Program-made: the position numbers and the translations under genes
Notes under the pieces: model-generated
Seen by the model: only the letters and a program-made list of their open reading frames with translations
What the model was told of the DNA's origin: nothing
Database searches by the model: none
Origin: Spirochaetia bacterium
GTDB taxonomy: Bacteria > Spirochaetota > Spirochaetia > Treponematales > Breznakiellaceae
Reading direction: 5' to 3'
Length of the DNA stretch: 9,310 nucleotides
Assembly: GCA_026002025.1 (NCBI GenBank)
Contig: BOAU01000079.1
Span: 1 to 9,310, forward strand
Shown: positions 3 through 7,802 of the stretch, one piece after another
Position numbering within the stretch: position 1 is the stretch's first letter
How the letters are laid out: every line of letters starts with the position of its first letter

Positions 3-575
3 ATTATCACTTCACCAGATGCCGATTACCGGGCGGTAACCACGGCGGCGGGCCAGACTTGGGACACGCTTTTGGGTAACTGGTTAAAGGCCAACTACAT
101 GAATGCTTTAAGCGGCGAGGAAGGCTACAAGGGAGAGCTGGCTGCCCGCGTGTGGGCAGTAGCGGGGGGATCAAAGACGCTCTACCCCGGCGAAGGGGTC
201 TATTCCATAGATAATTCCACCCCATCAGATACAGGTAACGTGAAATTCGTCCAAATAAGCAGAAGTACAATGGTTACGGGCCTGCCCTACAAAAATGCCA
301 CTGACGAACTCACGGCTGCATATACCACCGGTTATATTGGGGACCGGGTCCTCATGTACAATGCCAATGTGGACCAATCGCCGGTGGAAACCGGTACTTT
401 GCCCGGTACAGGCGAAACCAGGCCGTCGCTGACCAGCCTCTCCCTACGGGGCGTCCTTGGCGAAGCCGGACCCTTTGCCATCGGCGCCCAGGATGTGCTG
501 CGCCGTAAGGGGCATAATGGCTGGGAAATCAATTTTGGAGATTTGCCCAGGGTAGAAACTGATGGTTCAAATTAA
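3..575 (+). CDS. C-terminal part of an unrecognised, probably extracytoplasmic protein (5' end outside window)
   Basis: The frame is open from the first complete codon at position 3 to TAA at 573-575, giving 190 residues. No convincing start with a ribosome site lies inside, so the gene very probably begins upstream of the window. The TTG at 72 is in frame but interrupts a continuous sequence (GQTWDTLLGNWLKANYMNAL) and has no Shine-Dalgarno. The protein is rich in Gly, Thr, Ser and Asn, has no transmembrane segment here and looks like a secreted or surface domain. The WDTLLGNWLKANYMNA stretch faintly resembles the region after the catalytic domain of hyicolysin-like (M30) metallopeptidases of spirochaetes, but no HExxH or other catalytic motif is in the visible part, so this is only a guess. 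Its end overlaps the next gene by 14 bases, which implies co-transcription. Confidence 0.75.
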   Translation: MITSPDADYRAVTTAAGQTWDTLLGNWLKANYMNALSGEEGYKGELAARVWAVAGGSKTLYPGEGVYSIDNSTPSDTGNVKFVQISRSTMVTGLPYKNATDELTAAYTTGYIGDRVLMYNANVDQSPVETGTLPGTGETRPSLTSLSLRGVLGEAGPFAIGAQDVLRRKGHNGWEINFGDLPRVETDGSN

Positions 576-942
576 AGTCCGGGGGGCCAGGTTTTTTCTG
601 ATCCTGCCTCTGCTGTTTTCTGTTGCCGCCCTTATCATGGGCCTGGGCAGGCAGGATACCGATTCACCGGAGGCTGAAAAGCCCAGGACCGTGCAGGTTT
701 CAGGCCGGGTACGGCTGATTGGAAGCGGAAGCGGCCAGGAGCTGGTTATCACCGGGACCGGCCGGGAGTGGCGTATCGATAAAAAAGATCAGGACAAGCT
801 CTGGAATCTCCAGCAGCAGACCGTAACCGTGGAAGGCCTGGAAACATCACAGGAAATGACCTTTGCCAACGGCACCCTAGCCGGAATCTGGTATTACCTC
901 CGGGTCATACGCATTATTTCCGTTTCTCAGGCGGAAAATTAA
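562..942 (+). CDS. Small membrane-anchored or secreted protein, unknown function
   Basis: This 126-residue protein starts at ATG 562, inside the end of the preceding gene, with a weak ribosome site (AGGG, 549-552) nine bases upstream. Residues about 11-28 are a hydrophobic helix after a basic start (KVRGARFF), typical of a signal peptide or N-terminal anchor. There is no lipobox cysteine. The remainder is mostly short beta-strand-like stretches (VQVSGRVRLIG, ELVITGTGREWRI, QTVTVEGLE), a pattern suggestive of a small beta-barrel or OB-like fold. That fold assignment is inference only. The 14-base overlap suggests translational coupling with the upstream surface-type gene and a joint role in the envelope. 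Its TAA (940-942) interlocks with the stop of the opposite-strand radical SAM gene through the shared palindrome TTAA. I do not recognise a named family. Confidence 0.75.
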   Translation: MVQIKVRGARFFLILPLLFSVAALIMGLGRQDTDSPEAEKPRTVQVSGRVRLIGSGSGQELVITGTGREWRIDKKDQDKLWNLQQQTVTVEGLETSQEMTFANGTLAGIWYYLRVIRIISVSQAEN

Positions 943-1856
943 GGACCGATATTCCCCGTATACACATAGGGCAGGGTTTTCCGGGCCCGTTCCGCGGCCC
1001 GCATCAAAGCGGCCCTTTCCGTTGGGGGCGCGTTCCAGCGGTAGTCCGGGTGATAGGCTGAAAGGTGCCAGGGAACTTCAGCTAAAGCTGAAGTTCCTCG
1101 GAGTTTTGCCTTGGGGGCAAAACTCCACGAATTTTTGGGGGCCAGACCGGCGATAAAAGCAGCACATTTGTCCAGTTCTTCATCGCTGTCGTTGAGGCCG
1201 GGGATTACCAGTGTAGTAATTTCCACATGAACGTCGGCTTCATGGGCCATGCGGATAAAATTCAGGACCGCCGGTAAATTCCCGCCGAGAACTTTCGCGT
1301 AGGTTTCTTCTGAAAAACACTTGAGGTCGATATTGGCCGCGTCCGTAAGGGGGAGGATTTCCGTTGCCGCCTGTTCATTGACGCAGCCGTTGGTCACCAG
1401 TACATTGGCGATGCCCTGCTTCCGGGCCAGTTTCATACAGTCGATAAGGTATTCCGCATGGATCAGGGGTTCCGAATAGGTATAGGCAATTTGGCGGTCC
1501 GCCTTTGCCAGGGCAATTGCCTCTTCGGGCTTGAGGTATCGGCCCGGCGCGGCGGCGGCGCCGACAATTTGGGAAATGTGCCAATTCTGGCAGAAGGGGC
1601 AGCGGAGGTTACAGCCCGCAAAACCCAGGGAAAGGATCGATGAACCGGGGCGGAAACGGCGAAAGGGCTTTTTCTCGATGGGGTCACGGGCAATGGCGGT
1701 GATGTAACCGTAGTAAGGAAGGGCTAAAGCACCGTCTGAATTTTCCCTGACCCCGCAGGCGCCCCGGCCGCCTGCCGGGATATTGCATTGATGGGGGCAG
1801 AGGGTGCAGCGGATAGCGGCGCCCTCGGCACTTTCAAAAAAGCGGCCCTCAGACAC
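939..1856 (-). CDS. amrS: AmmeMemoRadiSam-type radical SAM enzyme (AmrS-like) carrying an in-frame palindromic insert
   Basis: The 305-residue protein has the family's N-terminal cysteine pattern (C17, C20, C24, C34 in RCTLCPHQC...GACGVREN) and a radical SAM CxxxCxxC motif at C82-C86-C89 (GFAGCNLRCPFCQNWHIS). C82-C89 should hold the 4Fe-4S cluster that cleaves S-adenosylmethionine. Later conserved blocks are AYTYSEPLIHAEY (124-136), VTNGCVN, IDLKCF and VIPGLNDS. It is often annotated as a pyruvate formate-lyase activating enzyme homologue, and the true substrate is not established. Two oddities stand out. About 19 residues (roughly 243-261) are encoded by a double-hairpin repeat just before PWHLSAYHPDY. 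The protein also stops at YVYTGNIGP, without the CPxCG-containing tail I expect in this family. GTG 1854-1856 is the start and overlaps the upstream gene by eight bases (GTGTCTGA). No strong Shine-Dalgarno is visible, so translation is probably coupled. No MEMO1 or AMMECR1 partner is in the window. Confidence 0.88.
   Translation of the reverse strand: MSEGRFFESAEGAAIRCTLCPHQCNIPAGGRGACGVRENSDGALALPYYGYITAIARDPIEKKPFRRFRPGSSILSLGFAGCNLRCPFCQNWHISQIVGAAAAPGRYLKPEEAIALAKADRQIAYTYSEPLIHAEYLIDCMKLARKQGIANVLVTNGCVNEQAATEILPLTDAANIDLKCFSEETYAKVLGGNLPAVLNFIRMAHEADVHVEITTLVIPGLNDSDEELDKCAAFIAGLAPKNSWSFAPKAKLRGTSALAEVPWHLSAYHPDYRWNAPPTERAALMRAAERARKTLPYVYTGNIGP
1072..1126. repeat. Double-hairpin palindromic element, copy 1, inside the amrS coding region
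   Basis: There are two perfect inverted repeats in tandem. Arms GGAACTTCAGC (1072-1082) and GCTGAAGTTCC (1087-1097) flank loop TAAA. A TC spacer follows (1098-1099). Arms GGAGTTTTGCC (1100-1110) and GGCAAAACTCC (1116-1126) flank loop TTGGG. Both stems are 11 bp. The element is in a coding sequence yet contains no stop in the reading frame of the gene, where it encodes residues about 244-261 of the radical SAM protein. Including the G and A that flank both copies gives 57 bases, exactly 19 codons. A second copy with the same design is at 7750-7802. Confidence 0.85.
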
Positions 1857-2289
1857 CGGCGTTTTTGGCTGCGTCAGCGGACTTGGCCGAATTCATTTCG
1901 GCGGAAGCTGCTTTAGCAGCCCGGAGCCTCAAAAAACGTTCCCGCAGTCCCTGGGCCTTGCCGGCGAACTGGACCGGATCATCAACCTCGAAGGGTTCCA
2001 GAATGACCCCGTGGGCGCCCCTGCGGAGCCAAAGTTTTACCAGGGGAATCCCTTCACCGCTTTGGGTAACCGCCGAGTGGAGTTCCTCCACATAAAGTAC
2101 ATCTTCAATGCGGAATTCCAGCACCGTGGGATTCAGCCCCAGGGCATCATAGACGAGGATAAGCTTGTCCTTTTCCGATGGGTGCTGCCGGGGATAACCC
2201 GTAAAGGGAAAGGCGTCTTTCGGGGGACCGCCGGGGTATTTTGTGATCTCGCTTAAAGGGAGGGTTTCAAGATAGCTTCCGATACTCAT
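1849..2289 (-). CDS. Hypothetical protein, upstream partner of the radical SAM gene
   Basis: From ATG 2287-2289 the product is 146 residues beginning MSIGSYLETLPL. An in-frame ATG at 2304 would add five residues (MYIYS). Neither start has a good Shine-Dalgarno. I prefer 2289 because a promoter-like pair at 2296-2325 would place the transcript start at or next to it. The protein is soluble, with no signal peptide or membrane helix. Visible parts are a compact alpha/beta region (LILVYDALGLNPTVLEFRIE, then VLYVEELHSAV and LVKLWLRRGAHGVILEPFEVDD) and a C-terminal Ala/Lys/Arg-rich helical tail from about residue 110 (RERFLRLRAAKAASAEMNSA). I do not recognise the family. Its last eight bases overlap the radical SAM start, so the two are probably translated together and may act in one pathway. 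Confidence 0.75.
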   Translation of the reverse strand: MSIGSYLETLPLSEITKYPGGPPKDAFPFTGYPRQHPSEKDKLILVYDALGLNPTVLEFRIEDVLYVEELHSAVTQSGEGIPLVKLWLRRGAHGVILEPFEVDDPVQFAGKAQGLRERFLRLRAAKAASAEMNSAKSADAAKNAGV

Positions 2290-7323: not shown

Positions 7324-7749
7324 GTGAAAAAGCTTTTCGGCGTTGTTTTTTTTGTACTCATGGCCGGTTGGCTGTTTGCGCAGAACGCGCCTACATATTA
7401 TCATATTGAAGTGTACTCCCGGGCATCAAATTACTTCGGCGATATACCCCGTTTTTCAGTTGATGACAGCAGACTGAAAAACGGTGAGGCATATTATGAG
7501 TTCTATCACAAGAACACCGGATATGCCTTTTTCATCTACTCAACCACGGGCGATACAAGTGCAATAACGGCTCCGCCCCAAGCTCCCTCGAATGCCGTGA
7601 CAATTAAAATATTCGATTGGTCAGGCACCAGCTATCCCATGTTTGAGGTTCAGATTGACCAAATTGTAACCCACTATATGCTGACCAATAAATCAGAGGT
7701 TGAGAAGCTGAAGATAGTGTTGAAATACAAGCTTTCCGTGCCCAGATAG
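7324..7749 (+). CDS. Small secreted protein, likely distant paralogue of its upstream neighbour
   Basis: The protein has 141 residues from GTG 7324, with GGAGG (7312-7316) seven bases upstream. The Sec signal peptide is MKK, then hydrophobic FGVVFFVLMAGWL, then LFA before Q20. The mature protein starts near QNAPTYYHIEVYSR and includes NTGYAFFIYSTTG (about 60-72), a Pro-rich linker (APPQAPSN), then KIFDWSGTSYPMFEVQI and a Lys-rich end (EVEKLKIVLKYKL). No cysteines, lipobox or transmembrane helix after the signal are present. The two YHIEV / NTGY blocks occur in the same order as in the upstream gene. Base composition is lower in G+C than the flanking housekeeping genes. Its TAG is immediately followed by the second copy of the palindromic element. 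Function unknown. Confidence 0.85.
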   Translation: MKKLFGVVFFVLMAGWLFAQNAPTYYHIEVYSRASNYFGDIPRFSVDDSRLKNGEAYYEFYHKNTGYAFFIYSTTGDTSAITAPPQAPSNAVTIKIFDWSGTSYPMFEVQIDQIVTHYMLTNKSEVEKLKIVLKYKLSVPR

Positions 7750-7802
7750 GGTAATTTGGCTATGCCAAATTACCTCGGAGTTTCGGGCATAGCCGAAACT
7801 CC
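7750..7802. repeat. Double-hairpin palindromic element, copy 2, in a convergent intergenic gap
   Basis: Arms GGTAATTTGGC (7750-7760) and GCCAAATTACC (7764-7774) flank loop TAT. A TC spacer follows (7775-7776). Arms GGAGTTTCGG (7777-7786) and CCGAAACTCC (7793-7802) enclose GCATAG. The hairpin, TC, hairpin order and the central CCTCGGAGTTT match copy 1. The two hairpin centres are complementary to each other (GGCTATGCC and GGCATAGCC). The element starts at the base after the TAG of the 7324 gene and ends 20 bases before the acyl-CoA ligase stop, so it could also shape both 3' ends. A run of seven T (7813-7819) follows ten bases later, too far for a standard intrinsic terminator. Confidence 0.8.

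What the first reader, a model, noticed from the sequence alone, without database searches (positions are those of the whole stretch)
1072..1126. Double-hairpin palindromic element inserted in frame inside a radical SAM gene
The sequence shows two perfect 11-bp hairpins in tandem within the amrS-like gene, read through without a stop. In AmrS proteins the segment ending ...FIAxxLGPxx runs almost directly into PWH(L/F)S...HPDY. Here about 19 extra residues (WSFAPKAKLRGTSALAE and neighbours) lie between, and they correspond to the repeat. An element of 57 bases with its flanking G and A equals 19 codons. This is what is expected of a mobile palindrome that tolerates insertion into protein genes, like the Rickettsia palindromic elements. 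To my knowledge, unchecked, this family is not described in spirochaetes.
Basis: partly seen in the sequence, partly recalled or inferred. Interest (0 to 1): 0.82.

Follow-up and report, generated by a model that had tools for sequence, protein, structure and literature searches.

The report
Coding palindromic repeat in termite-gut spirochaetes
A short DNA repeat that folds into two hairpins sits in frame inside a bacterial enzyme gene, and related copies are scattered through related spirochaete genomes, some inside other protein genes and inside the RNase P RNA gene, much like the coding palindromes known in Rickettsia.

Summary
Window 1072-1126 is two perfect 11-bp hairpins joined by TC, inside amrS. 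Ten amrS proteins carry the insert, with a 23-residue loop (15 in one); four close homologues without it have 4, a net 19 codons (57 bp). AlphaFold gives low confidence only there.

It is one copy of a dispersed family: core hairpin GGAGTTT(N)AAACTCC, short linker (mostly AA, CAA, TAA, TTA, GA), second hairpin of variable sequence. At least 3 exact cores occur in 43 of 194 order-mate genomes (reverse-read control: 3), up to 88. Of 80 copies read, 62 adjoin a perfect second hairpin (random positions: 38 of 4000). Copies lie in frame in hisF, histidine-kinase receivers and other genes, and inside RNase P RNA.

The amrS second hairpin stays fully paired while 4 of 11 pairs change on both sides and none on one side; leucine/lysine swaps in its loop codon fit loop inversion. 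This favours template switching during replication; selection is not excluded.

It works like Rickettsia palindromic elements and resembles Rfam TD-2 RNA of Treponema, but scores below TD-2's cut-off. How it moves is unknown; Y1 transposases show no genome-level link.

The parts
939..1856 (-). amrS-like gene (AmmeMemoRadiSam system radical SAM enzyme), host of the insert
   Evidence: 305-aa ORF; TIGR04337 265 bits, cut-off 220
1074..1142 (-). 23-residue loop APKNSWSFAPKAKLRGTSALAEV (residues 239-261) that holds the net 57-bp (19-codon) insert; exact borders cannot be fixed to the base
   Evidence: loop of 4 residues in P0129, P0130, P0131, P0134; residues 241-258 have pLDDT under 50 in the model
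1100..1126 (-). core hairpin GGAGTTTTGCC-CCCAA-GGCAAAACTCC (coding-strand sense), 11-bp arms, 5-nt loop
1098..1099 (-). 2-nt linker GA (coding-strand sense)
   Evidence: GA in 6 of 60 one-sided copies
1072..1097 (-). second hairpin GGAACTTCAGC-TTTA-GCTGAAGTTCC (coding-strand sense), 11-bp arms, 4-nt loop; its last 5 nt GTTCC code for V-P next to the conserved WHLS
   Evidence: pairs changed on both sides in relatives
7777..7802 (-). core hairpin of the second copy, 10-bp arms, between genes
7775..7776 (-). 2-nt linker GA of the second copy
7750..7774 (-). second hairpin of the second copy, 11-bp arms, 3-nt loop; starts at the base after the stop codon of ORF 7324-7749

Best explanation
The feature is one copy of a short interspersed palindromic repeat of the Treponema group. 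Shown: a constant outer core stem (GGAGTTT/AAACTCC), a short linker, a second hairpin of free sequence, many copies per genome in some species, orthologous sites with and without a copy, and in-frame copies in protein genes. In amrS it adds 19 codons in a loop whose length varies among homologues and which is modelled with low confidence. The stems stay complementary while their sequence changes on both arms. Inferred: copies spread by insertion with an unknown machinery, and the arms are rewritten together chiefly by template switching (hairpin-primed copying or inversion) during DNA replication. That would explain two-sided changes and flipped loops, and why in some copies (hisF, kinase receivers) one stem arm consists of conserved host codons with an inverted copy beside it. 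Where it lands it is probably selfish and nearly neutral.
For: Copies: 23 and 15 in G001 and G009, reverse-read controls 0 and 2; at least 3 copies in 43 of 194 order-mates against 3 of 194 for the control, my count from the table. Architecture: 62 of 80 copies adjoin a perfect hairpin, random positions 38 of 4000; linker AA, CAA, TAA, TTA or GA in 55 of 60 one-sided copies, T before the core in 55 of 60. Sites with and without a copy: amrS, L128 against L141 and L139 against L135. Genes; RNase P RNA. Two-sided change: second amrS hairpin 4 of 11 pairs, none one-sided; facing residues covary in 10 of 10 filled proteins and the loop codon changes between L and K 4 times at the least on the best tree; swapped aaa/ttt loops in the orthologous pairs L136/L148 and L135/L139. 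hisF: inverted copy of the AKR codons in L154 only, in none of 29 relatives. Template switching is described as making and mending such stems (PMC8794818, abstract and discussion).
Against: No movement was observed, no target duplication was recognised and no mobilising enzyme was found. The direction of change at the filled/empty sites (gain or loss) is not known; at the L139/L135 site other sequence stands in place of the copy. Filled amrS rows are not one clade on the best tree (4 changes), though one clade is not rejected, p-AU 0.146. Some stems are broken or changed on one side: amrS core helix in L003 and L001, L217 (2 mismatches) and L136/L148 second hairpin (1 one-sided). In the pair count, 69 of 500 shuffles reached the number of two-sided pairs and 447 of 500 the number of further pair types. 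57 of 194 genomes have at least one control match, so single core matches can be chance. Selection on an RNA or DNA structure would also give two-sided changes.
Confidence: 0.75

Rival explanations
1. The double hairpin is a functional RNA element (TD-2-like regulator, terminator or mRNA stabiliser) kept by selection on its structure; the amrS copy is such an element within the transcript.
For: Stems are conserved as structure, not sequence; TD-2 is filed in Rfam as an sRNA gene family and hits both window copies weakly; many copies lie between genes.
Against: Copies inside protein genes and in RNase P RNA and presence or absence of a copy at orthologous sites do not suit a fixed regulator. 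No common neighbour gene was seen among the copies read. No T-run terminator was looked for with a control.
Confidence: 0.15
2. A REP-like repeat moved by a Y1 (RAYT/IS200-type) transposase.
For: Short hairpins with a GGAG-bearing foot are recalled as RAYT substrates. Y1 genes lie near copies in G009 (about 1.1 kb, C16) and for two of three matches in G025 (about 4.6 and 6.5 kb).
Against: Genome level: Y1 in 24 of 43 genomes with at least 3 cores against 67 of 151 others, p 0.23; in 23 of 74 with TD-2 against 68 of 120 others, p 0.0006 the other way; 3 of 21 TD-2-rich genomes have one. The G009 Y1 gene lies among GGGACAGAGCT motifs, a different repeat. Presence of a different or a lost enzyme is not excluded.
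Confidence: 0.07
3. An ordinary length-variable protein loop that is palindromic by chance.
For: The loop varies from 3 to 23 residues among 25 amrS rows, also with unrelated sequence, e.g. P0141 and P0136.
Against: The same DNA core stands between genes (second window copy) and in other genes; two core matches against none in 200 shuffles; arms change together.
Confidence: 0.03

Closest known systems
Rickettsia palindromic elements (RPE); the Wolbachia coding palindromes are cited there only by title
   Same: Palindromic repeats in and between genes, fused in frame in conserved protein genes, and also inserted in the RNase P RNA gene (PMC2229807, passages)
   Different: RPE are 105-146 bp with 12-bp terminal inverted repeats, in alphaproteobacteria (same passages); here 55 bp (57 with borders) with a constant GGAGTTT core, in spirochaetes. 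Sequence relation was not tested.
Rfam TD-2 RNA (RF03162, clan CL00124)
   Same: Central hairpin GAGTTT..AAACTC, short A-rich linker, 3' hairpin; found through the same order. L247, over the TD-2 cut-off, has the GGAGTTT core with linker CAA
   Different: TD-2 has a further 5' hairpin and spacer; window copies score 29.5 and 28.2 bits, cut-off 48.7. Rfam files it as an sRNA; I found no text on it as a mobile or coding element.
Coding palindromes of Nematomorpha mitochondria
   Same: Perfect inverted repeats inside protein genes whose arms encode conserved residues (PMC6649704, abstract), as the hisF and kinase arms do here
   Different: Those are long (up to 284 bp) and mitochondrial; the abstract names no shared dispersed core.
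REP/BIME/REPIN elements with RAYT
   Same: Small palindromes in many copies, often paired
   Different: No genome-level link with Y1 transposases. REP and CGTC repeats are reported for Spirochaetes in PMC12306157 and PMC3733652, but Treponema does not occur in either main text (passages).

Membership tests
Rfam TD-2 (RF03162) | Score at or above the gathering cut-off, 48.7 bits | tested here: not met
   29.5 and 28.2 bits, E 0.36 and 0.67. In one search (five sources, E up to 10) the amrS copy (28.2) and L002 (26.4) were listed, the second window copy was not.
Rfam TD-2 (RF03162) | Central hairpin GAGTTT..AAACTC followed by a short linker and a 3' hairpin | tested here: met
   Alignment; TD-2 loci
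Rfam TD-2 (RF03162) | 5' hairpin and spacer before the central hairpin | tested here: not met
   In one search the model's 5' hairpin falls on GCCGG..CUGGC, which is amrS coding sequence; no such hairpin belongs to the window copies by eye
Rickettsia palindromic elements | Palindromic repeat present between genes and fused in frame in protein genes | tested here: met
   amrS copy and copy at 7750-7802; hisF, receiver domains and others
Rickettsia palindromic elements | Length 105-146 bp, 12-bp terminal inverted repeats, Rickettsia | tested here: not met
   55 bp, 11-bp stems in tandem, spirochaete relatives; feature list from PMC2229807 passages
REP/RAYT system | Y1 transposase in the genomes that hold the repeat | tested here: not met
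   24 of 43 against 67 of 151 genomes, p 0.23; some Y1 genes lie within 1-7 kb of copies
Transposing element | Observed movement or a target-site duplication | tested here: inconclusive
   Sites with and without a copy exist; no duplicated target was recognised by eye; movement itself cannot be tested here

The most novel reading that the evidence does not exclude
The repeat is a self-perfecting palindrome: a short core that, after landing, extends and repairs its second hairpin by template switching on the host's own sequence, so that host codons become one stem arm and an inverted copy of them is written into the gene. The hairpin then tracks the evolving protein (hisF AKR codons, receiver PII codons, amrS V-P codons). 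TD RNAs of Treponema would be members of this mobile family rather than regulatory RNAs.
Probability: 0.3. Interest if true: 0.8.

Novelty: new variant of a known kind. Interest (0 to 1): 0.62.

Why it matters
Protein-coding palindromes have been a peculiarity of Rickettsia and Wolbachia (as far as the passages I read and recall go). A separate case in spirochaetes, with copies in protein genes and in RNase P RNA, suggests that this lifestyle recurs. The copies are short, numerous and sit in many related genomes, so the open question whether coding hairpins are kept by selection or by template switching becomes testable by sequence comparison. It also suggests that a family catalogued as an RNA, TD-2, may be a mobile repeat.

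Tried and rejected
Rejected: chance palindrome; ordinary variable loop (copies outside genes); Y1/RAYT as a required mover. An early idea (notebook) that the second hairpin is always host flank plus an inverted copy was given up: in DegT (P0241 against P0242) the whole hairpin is in the insert, in amrS only about 5 nt are host, and the L128 hairpin is absent as a whole from the orthologous site in L141.

Led nowhere: exact search of viral contigs with the first hairpin and linker, 0 matches; a stricter pattern beginning CCNCGGAGTTT, 1 of 8 genomes, all 22 matches in G004, with L002 and L003 not held; a pattern guess in G001, 1 match against 8 for the control; papers on TD-1/TD-2 (the terms and Treponema are not in the main text of PMC2864571; supplements not open to me); a syntenic counterpart of the second window copy in G001, where similarity ends at window 6717.

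Rows dropped or not examined: P0133 by my loop regex; one G025 copy (3075624) not fetched, so 31 of 32; L074 does not reach the insert site; only part of 120 amrS proteins was printed, 4 of 120 kinase homologues were not readable. One search read only 6 of 30 hisF loci by regex; one search repeated it by alignment and read all 30. From recall only: that 4,059,867 bp is the Treponema primitia ZAS-2 chromosome (G025), that TD-1/TD-2 come from Weinberg and others 2010, and that REP feet bear GTAG/GGAG. That G051 is Leadbettera azotonutricia rests on an equal contig length, 3,855,671 bp.

Full report
What is there. Window 1072-1126 holds two perfect 11-bp hairpins joined by TC. On the coding strand of amrS (939-1856, minus; TIGR04337) the order is core hairpin GGAGTTTTGCC-CCCAA-GGCAAAACTCC, linker GA, second hairpin GGAACTTCAGC-TTTA-GCTGAAGTTCC. 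In the frame used it reads SFAPKAKLRGTSALAEV without a stop; three of the six frames of the 55 bp are open. A second copy, 7750-7802, begins at the base after the stop codon of ORF 7324-7749. The core pattern occurs twice in the window, and 200 shuffles gave none.

The insert in amrS. Of 80 related loci, three, L001-L003, carry the insert, as read from tblastn alignments; L074 does not reach the site. Among the window plus 24 of the 25 best proteins of a large search (P0133 was lost to my regex), 10 carry it. Their loops are 23 residues (15 in P0125) against 4 in the close homologues P0129, P0130, P0131 and P0134, a net 19 codons. The 15 rows without the insert have loops of 3-22 residues, some of unrelated sequence, so the site tolerates length change. 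The AlphaFold model (mean pLDDT 85.5) has one stretch under pLDDT 50, residues 241-258, inside that loop. On a tree built without the loop, filled and empty rows need 4 changes; several forks are weak, and one clade of filled rows is not rejected (p-AU 0.146). One gain with precise losses, or several gains, both remain possible.

A dispersed family. No genome is held for the window. In the genome of L001 (G001; 84% identical to the window over 5.8 kb) the core occurs 23 times and in its congener G009 15 times, with reverse-read controls of 0 and 2. In the order, 94 of 194 genomes have at least one match and 57 at least one control match, so single matches can be chance; at least three matches occur in 43 genomes and at least three control matches in 3 (my counts from the table). 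The highest are 88 (G004) and 67 (G128, control 7). I read 80 copies (G001 23, G009 15, G025 31 of 32, G051 9, window 2). Of these, 62 adjoin a perfect hairpin of at least 8 bp starting within 5 nt, 60 on one side and 2 on both, against 38 of 4000 random positions. Linkers in the 60: AA 22, CAA 10, TAA 9, TTA 8, GA 6, others 5; a T precedes the core in 55 of 60. So the element has a constant outer core stem, a polarity, and a second stem of free sequence. The search itself demanded the exact core, so decayed copies were not seen.

Where copies sit. Twelve of the 80 lie in frame in genes with homology support: amrS; hisF (L138); receiver domains of hybrid histidine kinases L140, L149, L211, L216, L217 and L223, each between an IRAxE and an xPII[AV]xTAN motif; FGE-sulfatase-like L125; DegT aminotransferase L131; and, more weakly, the N-terminus of a pseudouridine synthase (L208) and the linker of a B12/radical SAM protein (L220). 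The six kinase copies may stem from one or few old insertions: 13 of 116 readable kinase homologues, L149 and L140 themselves probably among them, show an [LV]EF peptide in the same loop. Surface-protein-like ORFs in G025 (L209, L219) carry several such peptides, without a test against homologues. Three copies lie inside RNase P RNA, one in L135 and two in L139 (Rfam 219.7 and 172.6 bits). Sites with and without a copy: the copy beside a tRNA in L128 is missing from the orthologous site in L141, and the 3' RNase P copy of L139 from L135, where other sequence stands instead. Which state is older is not known.

How the hairpins evolve. In four aligned amrS sequences the second hairpin is 100% paired, with 4 of 11 pairs changed on both sides and none on one side. 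The core helix has two pairs changed on one side and one broken pair, and L001 lacks most of one arm. Against 500 shuffles, the percentage paired, the cells changed on both sides and the covariation score were each reached in 3, the number of two-sided pairs in 69 and further pair types in 447; sliding the partner removed all two-sided pairs. In all ten filled proteins the facing residues covary (TS..EV, VS..ET, IS..EI), and the loop codon changes between L and K at least 4 times on the best tree, whose forks are partly weak. Inversion of the loop TTTA gives TAAA, which is that exchange. In three orthologous pairs of G001 and G009 (five stems) I count 6 two-sided changes and 1 one-sided change; in kinase paralogues the 9-bp arms differ by 2 two-sided changes in each of three comparisons, while L217 has 2 mismatches. 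Loops aaa/ttt are swapped in L136/L148 and L135/L139. This is the signature described for template-switch mutations (PMC8794818, abstract and discussion).

Host codons in the stems. In hisF the outer arm GCGAAACGC is the AKR of the DA[KA]R motif, which all 30 loci read share. The inverted copy and the core are in L154 alone and in none of the 29 relatives, whose loops run from 9 to 25 residues against 24. In L140 the outer arm covers the codons of RIPII of the receiver motif. In amrS only GTTCC (V-P) aligns with host residues, and in DegT the whole hairpin is insert. Arms therefore reach into the host in some copies only.

What it is related to. Rfam TD-2 is the only family with a match to the window up to E 1; it matches both copies, at 29.5 and 28.2 bits (E 0.36 and 0.67) against a cut-off of 48.7, and neither is significant alone. 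With more sequence and E up to 10, the amrS copy and L002 were listed and the second window copy was not. In the order TD-2 matches 74 of 194 genomes, 49 over the cut-off, and none of 14 control genomes; at most 19 candidates per genome were scored, so numbers per genome are floors. The TD-2 loci that I printed typically show a 5' hairpin, a spacer, the core GAGTTT..AAACTC, a short linker such as TAA or CAA, and a 3' hairpin; L247, over the cut-off, has the GGAGTTT form. The window element is thus a shorter relative, not a member by the curated threshold. It works like the Rickettsia palindromic elements, which also sit in frame in protein genes and in the RNase P RNA (PMC2229807, passages).

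What moves it is open. Y1 transposases are in 24 of 43 genomes with at least three cores against 67 of 151 others (p 0.23) and are rarer with TD-2. Against this, Y1 genes lie about 1.1 kb from a copy in G009 and about 4.6 and 6.5 kb from copies in G025; the G009 gene sits among a different repeated motif.

Novelty. Searches for Treponema with palindromic elements, for TD-1/TD-2, and for REP or termite terms listed no account of this element as a coding or mobile repeat. They cover an open-licence library and I saw listings, with passages of a few papers. Reports of REP or CGTC repeats in Spirochaetes exist (PMC12306157, PMC3733652, passages); Treponema does not occur in their main texts.

Noticed in passing
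L130 1017-2420: A Y1 transposase gene (about 1123-1458) stands among several GGGACAGAGCT motifs, which looks like a separate REP-type repeat with its own transposase.
   Followed up: partly
L128 about 200-500, orthologous to L141 2380-2640: At a shared copy, L128 has a further 16-nt palindromic insert (GCAACC-TTT-GGTTGC) in the loop of the core hairpin that L141 lacks.
   Followed up: no
L209 2494-5481, L219 249-2384 and 3572-5677: Surface-protein-like ORFs of G025 carry one or two element-encoded peptides each (GVSAxPKLQ, WSFGIAKTP), some near their N-terminal hydrophobic stretch.
   Followed up: no
L131 6802-8262 and proteins P0241-P0255: The same loop of the DegT aminotransferase holds other, unrelated insert-like sequences in relatives.
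   Followed up: no
L130 2513-2580: The second hairpin of this copy runs into sequence that reads like the Gly-Met-rich end of groEL with its stop codon (gene name by eye).
   Followed up: no
L153 1-400: Three core copies lie just beyond the 3' end of a 16S rRNA gene (417-1955, minus strand).
   Followed up: no
L149 2400-2560 and L146 2150-2260: Some copies are triple hairpins, with a second-type hairpin on both sides of the core.
   Followed up: partly
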